33,538 nucleotides of DNA from Kordiimonadaceae bacterium (GTDB lineage Bacteria; Pseudomonadota; Alphaproteobacteria; Sphingomonadales; Kordiimonadaceae), in the NCBI GenBank assembly GCA_030148905.1, contig JASBSO010000219.1:1-33538 (forward strand), read 5' to 3'. The notes beneath the pieces were generated by a model. The model ran no database searches, had not been told where the DNA came from, and worked only from the letters and a program-made list of their open reading frames with translations. Positions within the stretch are counted from its first letter, which is position 1. The number at the start of each line of letters is the position of its first letter. Positions 22,675 through 31,470 of the stretch are shown here, piece by piece. A program made the position numbers and the translations under genes.

Positions 22675-23691
22675 ATGTCAGACCTTGATACCATATGCGG
22701 AACACCATGCGATCAGTCGCGGTTTCAGCGCCCTCGGCTGTTGGTGCTGATCCACGCCGAGGAAGAATTTGACTGGTCTGCGGGCTTTTCGCGCGACGCC
22801 ACAGACATGACGCATGCTGAGCGCCTGCCGACTGTGCAATCTGTTATCGAAGATGCTGGCTTTCGGGCCACCTATTTGTGCGATGTTCCGTTTGCACGCT
22901 CGCAGATTGCGGCAGATTTTGTGCGAACATGCATGGCACGCGGCACAGCCAATATGGGGGCACAGCTTCACGCCTGGGTCACTCCACCCCACAACGAAAC
23001 AGTCTCGGACCGCAACAGTTTTCAATGCAATCTGTCCGCTGATTTGGAGCGGGCGAAAGTTGCTGCCTTAACAGATTTGCTGCATGCGGAATTTGACACG
23101 GCACCTGCGACCTTTCTGGCCGGACGCTATGGATACGGCGCGCGCACATCACAGGCACTGGCCGACCTCGGATATCAGATCAATGTCAGCATTGATCCGG
23201 GCCGTGACCACAGCCCCCAAGGCGGGCCGAATTACCGCGACTTCACCGCCAAACCCTTTTTTGACAAAGCCTCCCCCGCTCTTTTGCATATCCCCCACAG
23301 CGCCGGATATGTCGGCTGGCTGGCGCGCTCAGTCTATGACGGCACGCCGCAGTCGCGTGCGATCAAAGAGATATTTGACGCCGTGCGATTGACCGCGCGC
23401 CTTGGTGCGCTCAGCCAGCTCAGGTTAAGCCCTGAAGGGTTTCAATTGGGTGATTTACAGGCTTTGACCAAAGCGCTGTACGCGGCGGGACAGCGGGTTT
23501 TTACATACAGCTTTCATTCTCCCACCATCGCGCCGGGGCTGACACCCTATACCGAAAGCGAAGGCGACGTTGCCGCTTTTTTGCGGTCTATTCGGGACTA
23601 TCTGATCTTTTTTCGCGACGAATTGGGCGGGATGAGTGCCCTGCCAGAAGACATTTATGCGCGCTTTTCGACCGACAAGGCGGCACCATGA
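22675..23691 (+). CDS. polysaccharide deacetylase-like protein (WalW/NodB-type)
   Basis: A 338-residue protein related to WalW-like proteins of exopolysaccharide and lipopolysaccharide clusters, in the carbohydrate-esterase-4 superfamily. The first conserved block is LVLIHAEEEFDW (about residues 23-34), in place of the usual TFDD. GAQLHAWVTPPHNE corresponds to the metal-histidine block and AGRYGYGART to the third motif. Because the standard metal triad is altered, deacetylase activity is not certain. There is no signal peptide, so it acts in the cytosol. I chose ATG 22675; an in-frame TTG at 22639 would translate through the inverted repeat. Its stop overlaps the next gene's ATG by four bases, so the two are translationally coupled and probably work together on a sugar precursor. 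Confidence 0.8.
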   Translation: MSDLDTICGTPCDQSRFQRPRLLVLIHAEEEFDWSAGFSRDATDMTHAERLPTVQSVIEDAGFRATYLCDVPFARSQIAADFVRTCMARGTANMGAQLHAWVTPPHNETVSDRNSFQCNLSADLERAKVAALTDLLHAEFDTAPATFLAGRYGYGARTSQALADLGYQINVSIDPGRDHSPQGGPNYRDFTAKPFFDKASPALLHIPHSAGYVGWLARSVYDGTPQSRAIKEIFDAVRLTARLGALSQLRLSPEGFQLGDLQALTKALYAAGQRVFTYSFHSPTIAPGLTPYTESEGDVAAFLRSIRDYLIFFRDELGGMSALPEDIYARFSTDKAAP

Positions 23692-25421
23692 GCCTGGCGG
23701 TTCTTGTCTTTGGGGACGACCTGAGGGCTGCGCTGGCGGTGATCCGTTCGCTTGGCCGGGCAGGCTACCGCGTTCATATTGCAAGCTCGGATGCGACCGC
23801 ACCCGCCCTCTCATCGCGGTATATTGCGGCTATTCATCATATCGCGCCTTATTGGGCCGGGCCCGAGCGGTGGTGCGAGCATGTTCGAACCCTGATTGCG
23901 CGCGAGGCAATCGACGTGCTCTTCCCCATTGATGATCGAAGCGTCCTGCCGCTTAGGCACCATTGCGCCTTGTGGCCGGATACGGCGATAGCAGCGGTGG
24001 ACGGCAAGGCGCTGGACACGTTTTTTGACAAACACCTGACGCGGGAATTGGCGAAAAGCTGTGCTGTGCCAGTTGCCCCGGGCCGCCTGTTGCGCGAGGA
24101 CGATAGCGGCGTCGCACTCGCCCAAGACTTTGGCGTGCCGTTTTATATCAAATCCCGGCGGAGCTATGATCTGACCGACCTGCGGTCGCGCGGGCGGGTT
24201 TACAAGATTAGCAGTGCGAATGAGGCAGAGGACGTCCTTGCCCGGCTTGAAACGCGGTCGGACTTTTTGGTGGAGGGGGAAGCCCCAGGCATAGGTGCCG
24301 GCCTGTCCATTTTGGCAAAAAACGGAAATATTCTTGCCGCCTTTCAACATCGCCGCTGCCGCGAGGCCCCGCTGGGGGGCAGTGCCCTGCGCGAAAGTAT
24401 AGCGGTCAACCCGGCGCTTTTTTCCGCTGTAGTGGAGATGGCGCGCGCGACCGATATGACCGGGCTGGCCATGACCGAATGGCGTCTTGACTCTGAACGC
24501 GGGCAATACGCCCTTTTGGAGGTAAACGCCCGGCCTTGGGGCTCGCTACCGCTCGCCATAGCCGCCGGAGTTGATTTTCCTGCCTTGCACCTTGAAGCAA
24601 TGAAGAGGGGCGGTTCCTCTCCGCTGCAAATGAATGACACAACCGGCATCAAACGACGGGCGCTGAGCCTTGACCTAAACGGTGTGCAAAGAGCGGTGCA
24701 GTCAGCCTTAGGGCGCCGCAACGTCTTGGCACTTGGTCGCGCTGGTATGCATGCGGTCGGCTTTTGTTTTGCCGCGCTGTCGGGTGTGGGCGTTGATTCT
24801 TACGCCAGCGATGACCCTATGCCGTTTCGCCGGGAACGCGCCCTGATCGTGCGGCAAAAATGGCAGGCCGTTTTGCGCCTTATCCCAGGATACAGGCAGC
24901 GTAAAGCCATAGAGAATCGAGAGACTATTGCGCATATGGTGCATGCAGGCGCGGTAAACCGGGTGATTTTTCTATGCCGCGGTAATCAGTTTCGCAGCGC
25001 TTTTGCACAGCATCTGATGCAGAAAGAGCTCGCGCTCAATAGCATGCAGGCAGAGCATGACATTCTTTCGGCGGGGACCCGCACGATCAGCGGTCAGAAA
25101 ACCAGTGATGCTGCGATCAAGGCGGCGGAGGCTTTCGGTGTCGACCTTAACGTGCACCGCACGACATCGATTTGGGACCTGCCCCCGCAAGCTGGCGACC
25201 TTTGGCTTGGCTTTGACCCCATCATAGACGAAGAAATTGCACACGCTTACCCCATCATGCCGAGTGGGAGTGCCTATATCAATCTGACCATGCTGGACCC
25301 CCTCCCCCCAAGAGATATGAGCATCCACGACCCTGTTGATATGGCAGGCCGCGGTCAGCACGTTATTTTCGCGCAGATCCAACGCAGTCTCTACAATCTT
25401 ATGACTATGCTGGAGGGTTAA
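23688..25421 (+). CDS. ATP-grasp ligase fused to a low-molecular-weight protein tyrosine phosphatase
   Basis: A 577-residue cytosolic fusion. Residues 1 to about 110 form a pre-ATP-grasp domain (LVFGDDLRAALAVIRSLGRAGY). Residues 110-310 form a carbamoyl-phosphate-synthase-like ATP-grasp domain, with YIKSRRS as the nucleotide lysine block and the metal ligands Glu278 and Asn280 in LLEVNARPWGS. After a linker, residues about 425-577 are a low-molecular-weight phosphatase: the P-loop is CRGNQFRS (Cys430 to Arg436, the C-x5-R signature) and the general acid is probably Asp548 in HDPVD. Free-standing phosphatases of this type regulate polysaccharide tyrosine kinases; no such kinase is present here. 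ATP-grasp enzymes ligate a carboxylate to an amine or thiol, substrate unknown. The start is set by the ATGA overlap. The stop codon overlaps that of the opposing flippase gene. Confidence 0.88.
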   Translation: MSLAVLVFGDDLRAALAVIRSLGRAGYRVHIASSDATAPALSSRYIAAIHHIAPYWAGPERWCEHVRTLIAREAIDVLFPIDDRSVLPLRHHCALWPDTAIAAVDGKALDTFFDKHLTRELAKSCAVPVAPGRLLREDDSGVALAQDFGVPFYIKSRRSYDLTDLRSRGRVYKISSANEAEDVLARLETRSDFLVEGEAPGIGAGLSILAKNGNILAAFQHRRCREAPLGGSALRESIAVNPALFSAVVEMARATDMTGLAMTEWRLDSERGQYALLEVNARPWGSLPLAIAAGVDFPALHLEAMKRGGSSPLQMNDTTGIKRRALSLDLNGVQRAVQSALGRRNVLALGRAGMHAVGFCFAALSGVGVDSYASDDPMPFRRERALIVRQKWQAVLRLIPGYRQRKAIENRETIAHMVHAGAVNRVIFLCRGNQFRSAFAQHLMQKELALNSMQAEHDILSAGTRTISGQKTSDAAIKAAEAFGVDLNVHRTTSIWDLPPQAGDLWLGFDPIIDEEIAHAYPIMPSGSAYINLTMLDPLPPRDMSIHDPVDMAGRGQHVIFAQIQRSLYNLMTMLEG

Positions 25422-26932
25422 GCCGTCAGGTCTTCCACGTCCGTGGTTTTTGGAAACAGCTTTTTCAAGCCCTGTGTTGCCTGATCAAACACGAGGGCTT
25501 CCGCGCCGTCGGGTCGACCAGACAGCCGCCAGACACCCCAAAGTGCTGCACCATATGCGCTGGCACCGACGACAACCTCCATCACCAATTGCCAAAATCC
25601 AGCCCCCTGGCCCAATTGCGGAAGCGACAAAACAGCAAAAACCATCACGGCGCCCGACAAAAGCGGGCGAAACATTGCGGCGATCAAGGGGCGGAACAGC
25701 CCCGGCAACATGCGGCAACAGATTGCTGTCAGAAGCATCAGGATCCCAGTTTCTATGGCGGCAATAGCGATGATGACCGTCTCACCGGCTGACCGCAAAT
25801 CAACCACTAACAACAGCCCAAGCAGAAGGACAAGAGCGATACAGTCAATAATGAAAGCCCCGCGCAGACGACTGCAAAACAACAAATAGCGCGTCAAAAT
25901 CGCTCGTCCCAGACTGACCCCAACAGGCAGAACTGCTAGGCTCAAGAGCGGGGCCGCGGCAATCCACTTGTCCCCAGCCAAAATGGTGATTGCCGCCTCT
26001 GCGGTCAGGCCCAGACCAAAAAGAGCACTTGTGAAAATAATCATGATGGAGCCCATTGCGGTGACCAGAACCTTGATCCGCAGGTCAGATATGGTTTTGG
26101 CCTTAACGAGTGCCGGTTGCACTGAGGCATGGATAGGGGCTGCGGCCTGACCACCGATCAATTCCGGAATATTCAAAGCCATGCTATAATACCCGATATA
26201 CTCAGATGGGTTTGCACGCCCCAGGAGCAACAAGCTGATACGGTGACGCATTGCGCCCACTAGGCTCCTCGAAACAACCAAGCCGCTGAAGGCCGCAAAT
26301 TTCCGCCACCGCGAAAGTGTAAACCTGACCGAAAACGGCTTGACCCAATAGGACTGCACGACACGAAAAATTGCTGTGGCAAACGTGCCCGCAACAAGCG
26401 CCCAATAGGACCCAGTCCACAAAGCCATGGACACCGATGTCAGGGCACCTGCCAAGCGCGCGCGAACATCAATGGCGATCACCTGCTTGAATGAAAATTC
26501 TTTGTAGAGATCAACAAGAGCGACGTTCTCCAGCCCATTTACCAGGGGCAGCATAGCAATCACCAGCAAAACCGGCGCAACGCGGGGGTCATCAAAAAAA
26601 TCGGCCGCCGGATACGCCGCAAGCATCACCAGTAGGGCAACGGTTAGATTGGCGAGTAAATTAATGGACCAGCATGTGCGGTAGTCCTCAATGTCAGCAT
26701 CGCTCTCGCGCATTAAGGCGCTGCCGGTGCCGGTACTGCGCAGCACATCCGCTAGGGCAAAAACAGACATGGCGAGCGCAAAAATTCCGAAATCGCTGCT
26801 GTCCAGCAAGCGGGTTAACACGGCAACATTCACCAGCCCGATCAGGCGGGAGCCCAAGCGTCCACCAAAATGCCAGATGACGCCGTGGATGACCCGCATT
26901 TTGGTCGATTGGGGCTGGTCGGATTTGGTCAT
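25418..26932 (-). CDS. Wzx-like oligosaccharide flippase (MOP superfamily)
   Basis: A 504-residue membrane protein with 12-14 hydrophobic segments across its length. Its N-terminal half (GRLGSRLIGLVNVAVLTRLLDSSDFG reduced here to GLVNVAVLTRLLDSSDFG) is typical of lipopolysaccharide and exopolysaccharide flippases, which move undecaprenyl-linked repeat units across the inner membrane. YIGYYSMALNIPEL is also a family block. It lies downstream of the WcaJ-like initiating transferase on the same strand after a 93-base gap, and probably exports the lipid-linked sugar started by that enzyme. The ATG at 26932 has only a weak GAGACGG upstream. Its stop overlaps the stop of the convergent ATP-grasp gene, so no terminator separates them. 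Confidence 0.88.
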   Translation of the reverse strand: MTKSDQPQSTKMRVIHGVIWHFGGRLGSRLIGLVNVAVLTRLLDSSDFGIFALAMSVFALADVLRSTGTGSALMRESDADIEDYRTCWSINLLANLTVALLVMLAAYPAADFFDDPRVAPVLLVIAMLPLVNGLENVALVDLYKEFSFKQVIAIDVRARLAGALTSVSMALWTGSYWALVAGTFATAIFRVVQSYWVKPFSVRFTLSRWRKFAAFSGLVVSRSLVGAMRHRISLLLLGRANPSEYIGYYSMALNIPELIGGQAAAPIHASVQPALVKAKTISDLRIKVLVTAMGSIMIIFTSALFGLGLTAEAAITILAGDKWIAAAPLLSLAVLPVGVSLGRAILTRYLLFCSRLRGAFIIDCIALVLLLGLLLVVDLRSAGETVIIAIAAIETGILMLLTAICCRMLPGLFRPLIAAMFRPLLSGAVMVFAVLSLPQLGQGAGFWQLVMEVVVGASAYGAALWGVWRLSGRPDGAEALVFDQATQGLKKLFPKTTDVEDLTA

Positions 26933-27025: not shown

Positions 27026-28489
27026 TCAATACGCGTTTTTGCGGTCAAACAGCACGACAAAGGCTGTTTTCAGGATGATGAAAATATCAAGCCAAAGCGA
27101 CCAGTTGGCAATGTAATACAAATCAAATTCAATGCGCTTTTTGATTTTTTCCTCGGTGTCGGTTTCCCCCCGCCACCCATTGACCTGCGCCCAGCCGGTG
27201 ATGCCCGGTTTCATCCGGTGCCGTTCCGCATATTCGGCGACAACTTCATTATAAAGCTGGCCAGCGGCCTTAGCCTGGGTTGCGTGCGGCCGTGGGCCGA
27301 CAACCGACATCGAGCCTTCCAAAACATTAAATATCTGCGGCAATTCGTCGATGCTGGTTTTTCGTATAAAGCGCCCAATGGGCGTGATGCGGTCATCATT
27401 CTTGCTAGCAAGCTGGCTGGCATTGTCATCGGTTTTGTCCGCATACATCGAGCGGAATTTATACACTCGGATCAGCTCATTGTTGAAGCCATAACGGTTT
27501 TGCTTGAACAGAACCGGGCCTTTGGATGTGAGCTTGATGGCAAGCGCCGTGATCGCCAAAACCGGCCAAAGCGCCAGCAGAACCGCCAGGGCAACGCCGA
27601 TATCTTCCGCCCGTTTCAAAACGGCCGCCCATTCATTGATGGGGCGCTTGCTGAGTTTGGGGAACATATGGCTGCCCAAACGCAATTGCTCATATCGGTC
27701 AAAAGACCGACCCACCGTCTCCGTCGCCAGCACAACATCAAGGGCAAAGCGCGAAAGCTGCTTTTTGATCTGCTCGATCCGCTCATGCGCCGACCACGGC
27801 AACGCAACGATAACAAGATCAAGCGTTTCCTCGCTCAGCAACATGGGAAGGCTAGCAACACTGCCGACAACCGGCACATCGCCCACTTGGTTGGGCACGC
27901 GGTCCTTGCGGTCATCAAGGAAGGCAACCACCTGCAGGTCACTGTCGATATCATCCACAATGGCCCTGTAGACACGCTGCCCCTGATCACAGGCCCCAAT
28001 GATCACAACATTGCGGGTAATTTTGCCGCTGCGGATTTTGCGCTGAATCGTCCGCGACGTGAAAAACCGGTTGAGGACAAGCCCGCCTGTGAAGGTCAGC
28101 GCCCAACTAACGGCCCAAAGCCGCGAATAGTCCGATGTCACTTTCAGGGCGAACCCGGCAAACACCAAAACACCAAACATGAAGATCGCGGCCTTGAGTG
28201 CGCGCGAGGTCGACAAAAACTGATCGCGGATTGTGGCGCGCTGATAACAGCCTTCATAGGCCGCTGTGATGGTGAAAAACAGAACCGAAATTAAGTAAAC
28301 CGGCAAATAGGTGTCAAAGTGCCCCCACCCGACGTCGAACCAAAAGCGGCCCGCCCAGGTTAGCCAGAATGTCAGGCTGAGCAAAAGGATATCAAAGAGG
28401 GTCAGCGCCAGCGCATAATCCATAAGCCGACCATGCGTCTCCCCCCGAGATCGCTGGCTGGAAAAAACATCGCCCGTCCGCGTAACCAC
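27026..28489 (-). CDS. undecaprenyl-phosphate sugar phosphotransferase (WcaJ-like)
   Basis: A 487-residue inner-membrane enzyme that starts polysaccharide synthesis by transferring a hexose-1-phosphate from a UDP-sugar to undecaprenyl phosphate. The N-terminal half has about four membrane segments and a Rossmann-like CoA-binding-type domain (NVVIIGACDQGQRVYRAI). The C-terminal third is the catalytic bacterial sugar transferase domain: a membrane helix, then KFRSMYAD, the catalytic Asp-Glu in SIDELPQ, GSMSVVGPRPH and KPGITGWAQVNG. The length and layout match WcaJ/glucose-1-phosphate transferases. I chose GTG 28489 with GGGGGA 5 bases upstream. The longest open frame begins with a TTG at 28567 and adds unlikely sequence; ATG 28423 is also possible. 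The sugar, glucose or galactose, is not decidable. Confidence 0.9.
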   Translation of the reverse strand: MVTRTGDVFSSQRSRGETHGRLMDYALALTLFDILLLSLTFWLTWAGRFWFDVGWGHFDTYLPVYLISVLFFTITAAYEGCYQRATIRDQFLSTSRALKAAIFMFGVLVFAGFALKVTSDYSRLWAVSWALTFTGGLVLNRFFTSRTIQRKIRSGKITRNVVIIGACDQGQRVYRAIVDDIDSDLQVVAFLDDRKDRVPNQVGDVPVVGSVASLPMLLSEETLDLVIVALPWSAHERIEQIKKQLSRFALDVVLATETVGRSFDRYEQLRLGSHMFPKLSKRPINEWAAVLKRAEDIGVALAVLLALWPVLAITALAIKLTSKGPVLFKQNRYGFNNELIRVYKFRSMYADKTDDNASQLASKNDDRITPIGRFIRKTSIDELPQIFNVLEGSMSVVGPRPHATQAKAAGQLYNEVVAEYAERHRMKPGITGWAQVNGWRGETDTEEKIKKRIEFDLYYIANWSLWLDIFIILKTAFVVLFDRKNAY

Positions 28490-28698: not shown

Positions 28699-31470
28699 TT
28701 AAGACCCCAAATCCATTGCGACTCTAAAGCCACTGACCGCGAATCGGTCCGTTGGCCGGAAGTGCAGGCGCGCGGCGGAGCGCAAATCAGCGGCCAAAAA
28801 CCCCCACGCGCCGCCGCGTGCAACCCGGCGCTCGCACAAACCCGACGCGGCCGATGACCACGGCCTGTTGCTGGCTGGGATGTCGGCATAGCTGTCGCGC
28901 CAGCAGTCTTCGACCCACTCCTGAACATTGCCGTGCATATCAAATAAGCCGAAGCCGTTCGCGGCAAAACTACCGACAGGGGCGGTGCCGTAATTGCCCG
29001 GATCGCAGGGTCCGCGGAACCGACCCAAACGATTTTGACGCAGATTGATGGCCCCGTTCCCGTGCCGGCACAAATCGCTGAGCCGGTTGCCAAAGCTGTA
29101 GGGCGCAGTCGACCCAGCCCGGGCGGCATATTCCCATTCGGCCTCGCTTAAAAGGCGGTAACGCTGACCGGTTCTTTGGCTGAGCCACACCACATAATTT
29201 TTCGCATCGTGCCAACTGATATAAATCACCGGGCGATCCTCGCGCCCCCAGCCATGGTCGCTGGGGCGGTGTTGGGCGCACCCACCTTCCCCTACGCAAT
29301 GCGCCCACTGCCGGAATGTGACCTCGTATTTGCCAATCGCAAACGGGCGCGGAATGACAATTCGCCTTTGCGGCCCCTCATCGGACCGCCGCGCACGCTC
29401 GGTCGCTGCACTCCCCATAATGAAAGAGCCTGCAGGCAGCACAATCATCTCCGGGCAGTCCAGACAGTCACGAAATTCTTGCCCCACGCCCGGTAGGGGT
29501 TTGGTGTCGGTGTCTTGCAAAGCGTTCAATAGGCTGGCCGTCACGCGGCCAAGTTCTTGTCGGCCAGTCCAGCGTTCAAAAGACTGTATGGCAATGCTGG
29601 TGGCTTCATCGGCGATGCCCGTCACGGTCACACCGGCATAGTTCAACCGCTCCAGCTCGGCTTGCACACCGCGCACAAGCGCTGTGCGGGCCTCGGTACG
29701 GCTCTGCTGGGCCCGAATGCGGGCAATACCGTCGCGGGCTTGTACCCGGTACGCACCTTCCGACTGGCGGTCCAGATACTGTTCATAGCCATCCACCGTC
29801 CCTAGCCGCTGCGCCTGCGACCAGGCGGCATCATCGGTTGCTTTTTGCTGCGCGAGAACAGCGTCGATATAGCTTTGCTTGACAGCCTCAACCTCGCTGA
29901 CATGTCGGCCCGCCGGAAAGGCTGCGACATATTGATCCAGAGCCTCGTCAGTTCTTTGCTCGCGCGCCCACAGCCACGCCGCATCGTCCAATTCTTCCAG
30001 ATGGCGTCCATTCGGCCACTGCTGCCGGTAAATCAGCAAGGCCTCAAGCGTGCCGGTGCCTTGCGCGCGGGCAAAGGCCAGATCGTCGCGGCGGGCCTGT
30101 ATTTCGGCGATGTATTTTCCGTTCGGAAATTCAGCGGCATAAATGCGGTAGGCCACGTCTGTGTTCAGCGCGAGCGCCTGCTGCCATGCCGCTTCGTCAC
30201 GCAGGGCTTGCTGGCGCTCCTCTTCCACTGCGCGCGCGGCGTCAAGGGCCTCTTGCTGGCGAATGGCCTCAATTTCGCTTTGCGCCTCTTGTCCGTAATC
30301 GCTGTCGGGCCAGGCGTCTTGGAAGGCGAGCAAAGCCTCTTGCGTGCCAAGCGCCAAAGCATCCTCAAAGGCCCGCTGCTCTTGAAGCTGGGCCAAGACC
30401 GCAGGGTCCAACGGCTCGGGCCGTGTCAGCTGATACACCCCGAACCCGATCAGCGATACAACAAGGATCGCAGCAGCAGCCGTCGCATAGCGCCCCCGGC
30501 CTGTCGTGGCTTTCTTTACAAAGGCGCTGACGATTTCTTTTGCGTCGGCTGCATCGGCCGAGCCAAGGGAAAACCGCACACTGCCTTTGTGTTCGCGGCG
30601 CTCGGCAATATCCAGCTCGCTGGTCTGGTCACCGCGCGCGAGGGCCGAAAAATCGCGGTCCCGTGGTTTGGGTTTCATGCCAGAGTCAACCAACGCCGCA
30701 TCGAACGCGTCCAGCATAGCCGCCGCGTCATGATATCGGTCACCCGGTTTGGGGGATACGGCTTTCAGAATAAAGGCTTGCAGCGGATCGGTCACCTTAC
30801 GGCCAAATTTCAAAGCCTCCTCAAGGCTGCTTTTGCTGGCGTCCACCTTGCCGCCCAACAGGCGGTGCGCCAAAACCCCAAGCGAGAACACATCCGCCCG
30901 GCGGCTAAAGCGCCAGTCGGGCCCGCGTTGTTCGGGTGCGATATACACATCCGAGCCCTGCCCAAAAAGGCCGTCGCCCATATCCAGCGTGCGCGGCAGG
31001 CACGGCGAGCCAAGGCCTGAAAGCTCCAGTCCACCATCCGGCGATAGACAGATATTCGCTGCCCGAATATCCCCGTGCACAACACCGCTGTCGTGAAAGG
31101 CCGCAACGGCGTGTATCAAATCGCCAACCTGGCTGATGTCGGGCTTTGCCGCGCCCCGACTGGCCATGGTTTTGGTCCGGTAGGCCATCGCATACCAGGG
31201 GTGCATATCCTCGGTACGACCATGGTTAAAGGCTTCGATAATATAGCGGCTGCGCCCAAACCGCCTGAGCGCATTGGCGGCGGTTTGAAACCGGTCTTGC
31301 GCGCCCGACAGGCTCCCTGGGTGCAGGTCCAACACCGACAGGGTTTCCGCGTCGGGGTCAAGCACCTTGATAGCAACCGACTGCCCCGATGCATCCCGGC
31401 CTAAATACAGGGTGCTAAATCGTGCCCGCCTCAGTGTCTTGACGATTGTGTACTGACCGATCTGATCCAC
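28699..31470 (-). CDS. kinase-like / repeat / FGE-sulfatase-domain membrane protein, both domains apparently degenerate
   Basis: A 923-residue single-pass membrane protein. Residues 1-265 are a Ser/Thr-kinase fold that keeps Lys35 (VAIK), Asp134 and Asn139 (HGDIRAAN) and APE (178-180). It has lost all three glycines of the P-loop (LRRARFSTLYLG) and the DFG aspartate (SGLGS, residues 151-155). A membrane helix lies at about 328-348. Five repeats of roughly 35-45 residues (about 367-585) share patterns such as FPNGKY, WPNGRH and FPAGRH. A peptidoglycan-binding-like segment (about 597-650) follows. Residues about 665-923 are a formylglycine-generating-enzyme-like domain (PAGSFIMGS, YRLLSEAEWEYAARAG, DMHGNVQEWVED, RGGAWG) without the catalytic cysteine pair. 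Its eight cysteines suggest disulphides in the periplasm. It starts with GTG, and GGGGA precedes it. The role is unknown; it is probably a scaffold or envelope sensor. Confidence 0.85.
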   Translation of the reverse strand: MDQIGQYTIVKTLRRARFSTLYLGRDASGQSVAIKVLDPDAETLSVLDLHPGSLSGAQDRFQTAANALRRFGRSRYIIEAFNHGRTEDMHPWYAMAYRTKTMASRGAAKPDISQVGDLIHAVAAFHDSGVVHGDIRAANICLSPDGGLELSGLGSPCLPRTLDMGDGLFGQGSDVYIAPEQRGPDWRFSRRADVFSLGVLAHRLLGGKVDASKSSLEEALKFGRKVTDPLQAFILKAVSPKPGDRYHDAAAMLDAFDAALVDSGMKPKPRDRDFSALARGDQTSELDIAERREHKGSVRFSLGSADAADAKEIVSAFVKKATTGRGRYATAAAAILVVSLIGFGVYQLTRPEPLDPAVLAQLQEQRAFEDALALGTQEALLAFQDAWPDSDYGQEAQSEIEAIRQQEALDAARAVEEERQQALRDEAAWQQALALNTDVAYRIYAAEFPNGKYIAEIQARRDDLAFARAQGTGTLEALLIYRQQWPNGRHLEELDDAAWLWAREQRTDEALDQYVAAFPAGRHVSEVEAVKQSYIDAVLAQQKATDDAAWSQAQRLGTVDGYEQYLDRQSEGAYRVQARDGIARIRAQQSRTEARTALVRGVQAELERLNYAGVTVTGIADEATSIAIQSFERWTGRQELGRVTASLLNALQDTDTKPLPGVGQEFRDCLDCPEMIVLPAGSFIMGSAATERARRSDEGPQRRIVIPRPFAIGKYEVTFRQWAHCVGEGGCAQHRPSDHGWGREDRPVIYISWHDAKNYVVWLSQRTGQRYRLLSEAEWEYAARAGSTAPYSFGNRLSDLCRHGNGAINLRQNRLGRFRGPCDPGNYGTAPVGSFAANGFGLFDMHGNVQEWVEDCWRDSYADIPASNRPWSSAASGLCERRVARGGAWGFLAADLRSAARLHFRPTDRFAVSGFRVAMDLGS

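What the first reader, a model, noticed from the sequence alone, without database searches (positions are those of the whole stretch)
23688..25421. ATP-grasp ligase fused to a low-molecular-weight tyrosine phosphatase, coupled to a WalW-type deacetylase
One 577-residue frame carries an ATP-grasp domain with its metal ligands (Glu278, Asn280) and a phosphatase domain with an intact C-x5-R loop (Cys430-Arg436) and an HDP acid motif. These two activities are not usually joined. The four-base overlap with a deacetylase-like gene suggests a small precursor-modifying system: ligation onto a sugar or amino acid, and removal of a phosphate from the product or from a regulatory protein. No polysaccharide tyrosine kinase is present for the phosphatase to oppose, so its target may be small-molecule or intramolecular.
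Basis: partly seen in the sequence, partly recalled or inferred. Interest (0 to 1): 0.6.

Follow-up and report, generated by a model that had tools for sequence, protein, structure and literature searches.

The report
Fused glycan-decorating ligase and phosphatase
The gene is a real fusion of an ATP-driven ligase and a small phosphatase, and together with a neighbouring sugar deacetylase it belongs to a widespread but uncharacterised gene set that probably attaches a chemical group to an amino sugar in bacterial (and some archaeal) surface polysaccharides.

Summary
In detail: 23688-25421 is one intact 577-aa frame, ATP-grasp (PF15632) plus low-molecular-weight phosphatase (LMWPTP, PF01451), overlapping a deacetylase-like gene by ATGA. 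The claim that these activities are "not usually joined" is wrong. One scan of public genomes gave 47 full-length fusions, mainly from Pseudomonadota and Acidobacteriota, with Planctomycetota, Nitrospirota and others. Related unfused ATP-grasps often sit beside a separate LMWPTP, in haloarchaea too. Elsewhere the LMWPTP is fused to a GT4 glycosyltransferase or an acyltransferase.

Of 50 fusion loci, 34 have a polysaccharide deacetylase within 400 bp, always on the same strand, 14 with 4-bp overlaps. The gene beside the window's fusion (WalW-type) is predicted to have the deacetylase fold. So this is a conserved deacetylase + ATP-grasp + LMWPTP set in exopolysaccharide clusters.

Most likely (about 0.4), the deacetylase frees an amine on a glycan precursor, ATP-grasp acylates it, and the LMWPTP removes a phosphate from the intermediate. 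No enzyme activity is shown. A Wzb-like regulatory role remains possible: a tyrosine kinase exists elsewhere in the genome. Two haloarchaea with the pair lack Wzz kinases, and the window's phosphatase has lost the Wzb-type phosphotyrosine-pocket residues. No description was found in the papers searched.

The parts
23688..25421 (+). ATP-grasp ligase - LMWPTP fusion protein, 577 aa
23688..24827 (+). ATP-grasp part with its C-terminal extension (about residues 1-380; K115, K155, E264, E278, N280, R282 invariant in 43 homologues; conserved D370 and D376 just after the catalytic domain)
   Evidence: fold match 2pn1, TM (target) 0.80
24948..25418 (+). LMWPTP domain (about residues 421-577): P-loop C430-RGNQF-R436-S437, D-loop D548-P549; pocket residues R431, Q434, V550 unlike the YIY of most relatives
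22675..23691 (+). WalW-type deacetylase-like protein, 338 aa, predicted CE4/NodB-type fold; overlaps the fusion gene by 4 bp; position 97 is Gln where 11 of 12 relatives have His
25418..26932 (-). Wzx-type oligosaccharide flippase, convergent with the fusion gene
   Evidence: flippases also neighbour the fusion in Vibrio, Alishewanella and others
27026..28423 (-). initiating sugar-phosphate transferase (Bac_transf, CoA_binding_3), start of polysaccharide assembly

Best explanation
The fusion and its overlapping deacetylase form the core of a conserved gene set for decorating surface polysaccharide. Shown here: the genes are linked, the three activities recur together in fused and unfused form, the catalytic residues of both fused domains are conserved, and the context is exopolysaccharide clusters. 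Inferred mechanism: (1) the CE4-type deacetylase removes an acyl group from an amino sugar of a precursor and exposes an amine; (2) the ATP-grasp domain activates a carboxylate, probably an amino acid or another small acid, as an acyl-phosphate and joins it to that amine; (3) the LMWPTP domain removes a phosphate ester carried by the intermediate, for example one left by a phosphorylated acceptor or donor, which pulls the sequence forward. The decorated unit is then exported by the flippase/polymerase machinery. In this reading the phosphatase is a pathway enzyme and not primarily a regulator of a tyrosine kinase.
For: 34 of 50 fusion loci carry a deacetylase (22 NodB PF01522-type, 12 WalW-type) within 400 bp, all 34 on the same strand, 14 with a 4-bp overlap. 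Deacetylases make up 27 of 96 directly adjacent genes against 20 of 556 other genes in the same loci (odds ratio 10.5, p about 1e-12; near-copies among loci make the p-value too small). Unfused versions keep the link: NodB>LMWPTP>ATP-grasp (L099, L107, L108), LMWPTP>ATP-grasp with NodB alongside (L111), GT4>LMWPTP>ATP-grasp>NodB (L081), NodB>ATP-grasp>GT4>LMWPTP (L089), NodB>ATP-grasp>GT4-LMWPTP fusion (L085). LMWPTP is also fused to GT4 (L075, L085) and to an acyltransferase (L033) beside the same kind of ATP-grasp. Two haloarchaea with the linked pair have no Wzz protein and no BY-kinase above cut-off, and their LMWPTPs score higher on the fusion profile (166 and 158 bits) than E. coli Wzb (125). 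WalW has the CE4 fold by model and NodB partners keep DDG and HxxxH. Precedents: mycothiol synthesis uses a glycosyltransferase, a phosphatase, a deacetylase and an ATP-dependent ligase (PMC9736012); C. jejuni HS:2 capsule uses an ATP-grasp amidoligase followed by a phosphatase (PMC12409886, PMC11800379).
Against: No substrate or activity is shown. 16 of 50 fusion loci have no recognised deacetylase within 400 bp (some carry a GDSL esterase or GINT1-like gene instead). WalW is far more widespread than the fusion (53 of 101 related genomes), often in exosortase-A clusters without it, so it is not specific to this ligase. The nearest solved relatives of the LMWPTP domain by profile are Wzb and AmsI, and 31 of 43 fusions keep an aromatic/hydrophobic pocket (Tyr-Ile-Tyr) compatible with phosphotyrosine. 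Two close relatives (L031, L042) have the ATP-grasp without an LMWPTP, so the phosphatase is dispensable in some. In the window's WalW a likely metal-site His is Gln.
Confidence: 0.4

Rival explanations
1. Wzb-like regulator: the LMWPTP domain dephosphorylates a BY-kinase (Wzc type) that controls polysaccharide polymerisation, and is fused to the ATP-grasp decorating enzyme to couple decoration with export.
For: Best solved matches of the profile are Wzb and AmsI. The genome has a BY-kinase with a tyrosine-rich tail. Most fusions keep the Ile and DPY residues that line the phosphotyrosine pocket in Wzb (pocket described in PMC7948962). Attachment to several different decorating enzymes (ATP-grasp, GT4, acyltransferase) could be a regulatory add-on.
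Against: A BY-kinase lies within 1.5 kb in only 4 of 50 loci. Two haloarchaea with the linked pair have no Wzz and no BY-kinase above cut-off. In the window's own protein the pocket is R431/Q434/V550 instead of hydrophobic/Ile/Tyr. The genome also has a separate LMWPTP on contig 139 that could serve the kinase.
Confidence: 0.22
2. Campylobacter-type amidation: the ATP-grasp domain joins a phosphorylated amine (such as ethanolamine phosphate or serinol phosphate) to a uronic-acid carboxylate of the glycan, and the fused LMWPTP then removes that phosphate so that the next sugar can be added. The deacetylase acts on another residue of the same polymer.
For: Exactly this order of steps, by an ATP-grasp amidoligase (Cj1438 C-terminal domain) and a phosphatase (Cj1435), is reported for C. 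jejuni HS:2 (PMC12409886, PMC11800379). It explains why ligase and phosphatase are the pair that becomes fused (separate fusions at L073 and L101). Linkage to GT4 and GT2 genes fits addition on a growing chain.
Against: Cj1438C is described as a TupA-like ATP-grasp, not the PF15632 type; its phosphatase is of the HAD family (title cited). No uronate-forming or amine-phosphate-forming enzyme was found as a constant neighbour. The strongest constant partner is a deacetylase, which this scheme does not need.
Confidence: 0.2
3. No common pathway step: the genes are independent parts often found together because exopolysaccharide clusters are rich in deacetylases, ligases and phosphatases; the fusion is an expression or localisation convenience.
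For: WalW and NodB genes are common in such clusters without the fusion. Two close relatives lack the LMWPTP.
Against: Strand and 4-bp overlap bias (34 of 34 on the same strand), over-representation next to the fusion against the rest of the same clusters, and at least two separate fusions plus unfused adjacency in distant clades are hard to get without a shared function.
Confidence: 0.13

Closest known systems
Mycothiol biosynthesis (MshA glycosyltransferase, MshA2 phosphatase, MshB deacetylase, MshC ligase)
   Same: Same set of activities: glycosyltransferase (GT4 in several unfused loci), phosphatase, amino-sugar deacetylase, ATP-dependent ligase onto the freed amine (scheme in PMC9736012).
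   Different: The ligase here is ATP-grasp and the phosphatase LMWPTP; by general knowledge MshC is an aminoacyl-tRNA-synthetase-like enzyme and MshB is of the LmbE type. The genes sit in exopolysaccharide clusters, and the window itself has no GT4. A likeness of logic only, not a member.
C. jejuni HS:2 capsule amidation (Cj1438C amidoligase, Cj1435 phosphatase)
   Same: ATP-grasp amidoligase plus phosphatase acting in sequence on a surface polysaccharide.
   Different: Different ATP-grasp subtype (TupA-like) and a HAD phosphatase; no dedicated deacetylase described in the passages read; the fusion there is GT2-amidoligase and not amidoligase-phosphatase.
Wzb/AmsI low-molecular-weight tyrosine phosphatases
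   Same: Same fold and catalytic P-loop and D-loop; nearest solved relatives by profile.
   Different: Fused to a ligase and rarely beside a BY-kinase; pocket residues changed in the window's copy.
PF15632 ATPgrasp_Ter and related ATP-grasp carboxylate-amine ligases (L-amino acid ligase, PylC)
   Same: Same fold and nucleotide/metal residues.
   Different: No tellurite-resistance (Ter) gene was recognised near the gene; the partner set is glycan genes.
Exosortase-A/PEP-CTERM exopolysaccharide clusters
   Same: The Vibrio fusion and several WalW genes lie in such clusters, and the window's genome encodes an exosortase.
   Different: No exosortase or PEP-CTERM gene was identified in the window; most fusion loci were not tested for one.

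Membership tests
LMWPTP (PF01451) | score above curated cut-off | tested here: met
   35.9 bits against 23.2
LMWPTP (PF01451) | C-x5-R-S P-loop and D-P general acid | tested here: met
   C430, R436, S437, D548, P549 invariant in 43 fusions
Wzb-type regulatory tyrosine phosphatase | hydrophobic/aromatic phosphotyrosine pocket (Wzb-type V10, I13, Y121) | tested here: not met
   R431, Q434, V550 in the window protein; Tyr-Ile-Tyr in 31 of 43 relatives
Wzb-type regulatory tyrosine phosphatase | encoded beside its BY-kinase | tested here: not met
   none in the window; 4 of 50 fusion loci have one within 1.5 kb; one elsewhere in the genome
Wzb-type regulatory tyrosine phosphatase | dephosphorylates BY-kinase tyrosines | not testable with these tools
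   needs an assay
ATP-grasp ligase | fold and nucleotide/metal residues | tested here: met
   K115, K155, E264, E278, N280, R282 invariant; 2pn1 TM (target) 0.80, PylC and L-amino acid ligase among hits
PF15632 ATPgrasp_Ter, Ter-operon pathway | Ter operon context | tested here: not met
   domain match above cut-off, but no Ter gene was recognised in the window proteins read or among the recurrent neighbours
CE4/NodB polysaccharide deacetylase (WalW gene) | CE4-type barrel fold | tested here: met
   pLDDT 90.9 model; Foldseek best 3rxz, HP0310, ArnD, E down to 1.5e-8
CE4/NodB polysaccharide deacetylase (WalW gene) | metal-binding D-H-H motif (DDG, HxxxH) | tested here: inconclusive
   no canonical motif; conserved EEEF and HLHxW instead, with Gln for the first His in the window; no Pfam hit at E up to 1
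Mycothiol-type pathway | GT4, phosphatase, deacetylase and ligase encoded together | tested here: inconclusive
   met in L081, L085, L089; the window lacks the GT4
Mycothiol-type pathway | ligase of MshC family | tested here: not met
   the ligase is ATP-grasp
C. jejuni-type CPS amidation | TupA-like ATP-grasp amidoligase and HAD phosphatase | tested here: not met
   PF15632-type ATP-grasp and LMWPTP found instead

The most novel reading that the evidence does not exclude
A widespread, unnamed biosynthetic module shared by bacteria and haloarchaea installs an amide-linked group on an amino sugar of surface glycans, and in it a low-molecular-weight 'tyrosine' phosphatase works as a metabolic enzyme on a glycan intermediate rather than on proteins.
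Probability: 0.35. Interest if true: 0.65.

Novelty: new variant of a known kind. Interest (0 to 1): 0.45.

Why it matters
LMWPTPs in polysaccharide clusters are routinely read as Wzb-like regulators. A conserved deacetylase + ATP-grasp + LMWPTP set, with repeated fusions of the phosphatase to ligase, glycosyltransferase or acyltransferase, suggests many of them may be biosynthetic enzymes, and predicts an undescribed amide decoration of surface glycans in many phyla. It gives a concrete testable set of genes where annotation now says only 'ATP-grasp domain-containing protein'.

Tried and rejected
Frameshift or assembly join: rejected (47 independent fusions, plus a complete plasmid record of Vibrio alfacsensis at full length). 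Defence-system membership: no PADLOC hit. Ter-operon pathway despite the Pfam name: no Ter genes recognised. YwlE-type arginine phosphatase: these proteins scored well below Wzb in the profile search; by general knowledge arginine specificity goes with Thr in the P-loop, where Ile is found in 41 of 43. WalW as a strictly dedicated partner: rejected, it is widespread on its own. Single-protein scan of genome contigs found nothing; the alignment query was needed. Haloarchaeal plasmid hits inspected have no annotated LMWPTP next to the ATP-grasp, so linkage in archaea is partial (seen in L088 and L092). A literature search for 'WalW' was useless (one search matched surnames and place names).

Full report
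What was checked. The frame 23688-25421 is intact and encodes 577 aa. Pfam places an ATP-grasp domain (PF15632, 37.2 bits against a cut-off of 29.1) and an LMWPTP domain (PF01451, 35.9 against 23.2) in it. A model from 43 homologues is confident along its whole length (mean pLDDT 92.6, pTM 0.89). It matches ATP-grasp enzymes (2pn1 with TM 0.80 by target; biotin carboxylases, PylC, an L-amino acid ligase). The profile's C-terminal part matches Wzb, AmsI and other LMWPTPs.

The architecture is not rare. An alignment-based scan of 84,980 species genomes returned 80 loci, of which 47 are full-length fusions. Record titles name Alpha-, Beta- and Gammaproteobacteria, Acidobacteria, Planctomycetota, Nitrospirae, Calditrichota, Bacteroidales, Lachnospiraceae and Myxococcota. 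Many of these records are MAGs, but named isolates are included (Alishewanella, Vibrio, Alteromonas, Pseudomaricurvus, Sphingomonas, Thiomonas), and a Vibrio alfacsensis plasmid carries the same order of domains inside an XrtA/PEP-CTERM exopolysaccharide cluster. In all 43 aligned fusions K115, K155, E264, E278, N280, R282 and C430, G432, N433, R436, S437, D548, P549 are invariant, so both active sites are under selection.

The deacetylase partner. In the window the upstream gene overlaps by ATGA; in Vibrio its homologue (35% identity) overlaps downstream. Over 50 fusion loci, 34 have a deacetylase within 400 bp: 21 NodB upstream, 1 NodB downstream, 4 WalW upstream, 8 WalW downstream, all on the same strand, 14 with exactly 4 bp overlap. 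Two further loci have WalW 1.3 kb away. Deacetylases are 27 of 96 adjacent genes but 20 of 556 others in the same loci; some loci are near-copies, so the p-value is only indicative. NodB partners keep DDG and HxxxH. WalW has no Pfam match at E up to 1 but folds as a CE4-type deacetylase (weak profile support). Its motif differs (EEEF, HLHxW), and the window's copy has Gln at the first His, so its activity is not assured. WalW is also common without the fusion (53 of 101 related genomes), including exosortase-A clusters.

Unfused relatives keep the link. Related ATP-grasps without the fused domain often have a free LMWPTP next door, in several orders: NodB>LMWPTP>ATP-grasp (L099, L107, L108), LMWPTP>ATP-grasp with NodB alongside (L111), divergent (L072, L082, L091, L095), GT4>LMWPTP>ATP-grasp>NodB (L081), NodB>ATP-grasp>GT4>LMWPTP (L089). 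In L075 and L085 the LMWPTP is fused to a GT4 glycosyltransferase, and in L033 to an acyltransferase. On an ATP-grasp tree the 47 fusions need 5 changes of state, at least 4 of them forced by well supported branches: one large clade (with losses at L031 and L042) and two separate fusions (L073, L101) (quick tree, SH-aLRT support only). The main clade splits roughly into WalW-associated and NodB-associated groups, as if two deacetylase types fill one slot.

What the phosphatase acts on. For a Wzb role: closest solved relatives, a BY-kinase in the genome on contig 153 with Wzz, GNVR and AAA_31 domains and a tyrosine-rich tail, and a Tyr-Ile-Tyr pocket in 31 of 43 fusions. Against it: BY-kinases are rarely close (4 of 50). 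Two haloarchaea with the linked pair have no Wzz at all and no BY-kinase above cut-off, while their LMWPTPs score above E. coli Wzb on the fusion profile. The window's protein has R431, Q434 and V550 at positions that in Wzb contact the phenyl ring (PMC7948962). Fusion to GT4 and acyltransferase is easier to read as a pathway enzyme, though a regulatory tag is not excluded. The archaeal argument rests on two genomes only, and the LMWPTP there is adjacent, not fused.

Mechanism. The combination deacetylase, ATP-dependent ligase, phosphatase and, in several loci, GT4 is the set used in mycothiol synthesis (PMC9736012). An ATP-grasp ligase followed by a phosphatase is used in C. jejuni capsule amidation (PMC12409886, PMC11800379). 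The best-supported reading is that the deacetylase exposes an amine, ATP-grasp acylates it, and LMWPTP removes a phosphate from the intermediate. Linkage, conservation and context are shown; every substrate is inferred. Neither precedent's protein families are met, so the module is like them in logic and is not a member.

Context. The window also carries a flippase and an initiating sugar transferase on the other strand, and the genome has an exosortase. The organism is probably a relative of Kordiimonadaceae: genome G029, listed as the same family, has a 7,292-base contig matching record JAESQS010000338, a Kordiimonadaceae MAG. This is inferred, not stated by the tools.

Literature. Eight usable full-text searches of an open-access library found no description of the fusion or the module. 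Subscription papers are missing from that library, so absence is weak evidence. PMC4000134 reports ATP-grasp amino-acyl ligases in other modified-carbohydrate neighbourhoods.

Noticed in passing
window 28699-31470 (-): A 923-aa protein joins a protein-kinase domain, a peptidoglycan-binding repeat and a formylglycine-generating-enzyme (FGE-sulfatase) domain.
   Followed up: no
G000 contig 153, L027:3537-5810 (+): Wzz-GNVR-AAA_31 BY-kinase of the same genome, outside the window, with a tyrosine-rich tail.
   Followed up: partly
G000 contig 145:4413-5099: Exosortase (8TM_EpsH, 139 bits, above cut-off), so the organism has an exosortase system.
   Followed up: no
L033:9739-11331 (-): LMWPTP fused to the C-terminus of a membrane acyltransferase (Acyl_transf_3), convergent with an ATP-grasp gene.
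   Followed up: partly
L128:12145-13131 (+): A 328-aa protein joins an LMWPTP-type arsenate reductase to a glutaredoxin-dependent ArsC: two unrelated arsenate reductase families in one chain.
   Followed up: no
L126:6222-7454 (+): Sugar-1-phosphate nucleotidyltransferase fused to a HAD histidinol-phosphatase/GmhB-like domain, overlapping a WalW gene by 4 bp.
   Followed up: no
L047 and L078: Alteromonas portus and a MAG labelled Rhodospirillaceae share the same upstream gene layout at the fusion; either transfer or a mislabelled MAG.
   Followed up: no
L054, L055, L056, L041, L057, L073: Fusions without a recognised deacetylase nearby often have a GINT1-like glucosamine-transferase gene next door, and in three loci a GDSL esterase overlapping by 4 bp, possibly a replacement for the deacetylase.
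   Followed up: partly
L119 (Nitratidesulfovibrio vulgaris plasmid): Related ATP-grasp without LMWPTP sits in a row with a decarboxylase annotated as diaminopimelate decarboxylase, a GNAT protein and an acyl-CoA-ligase-like gene, next to prsK.
   Followed up: no
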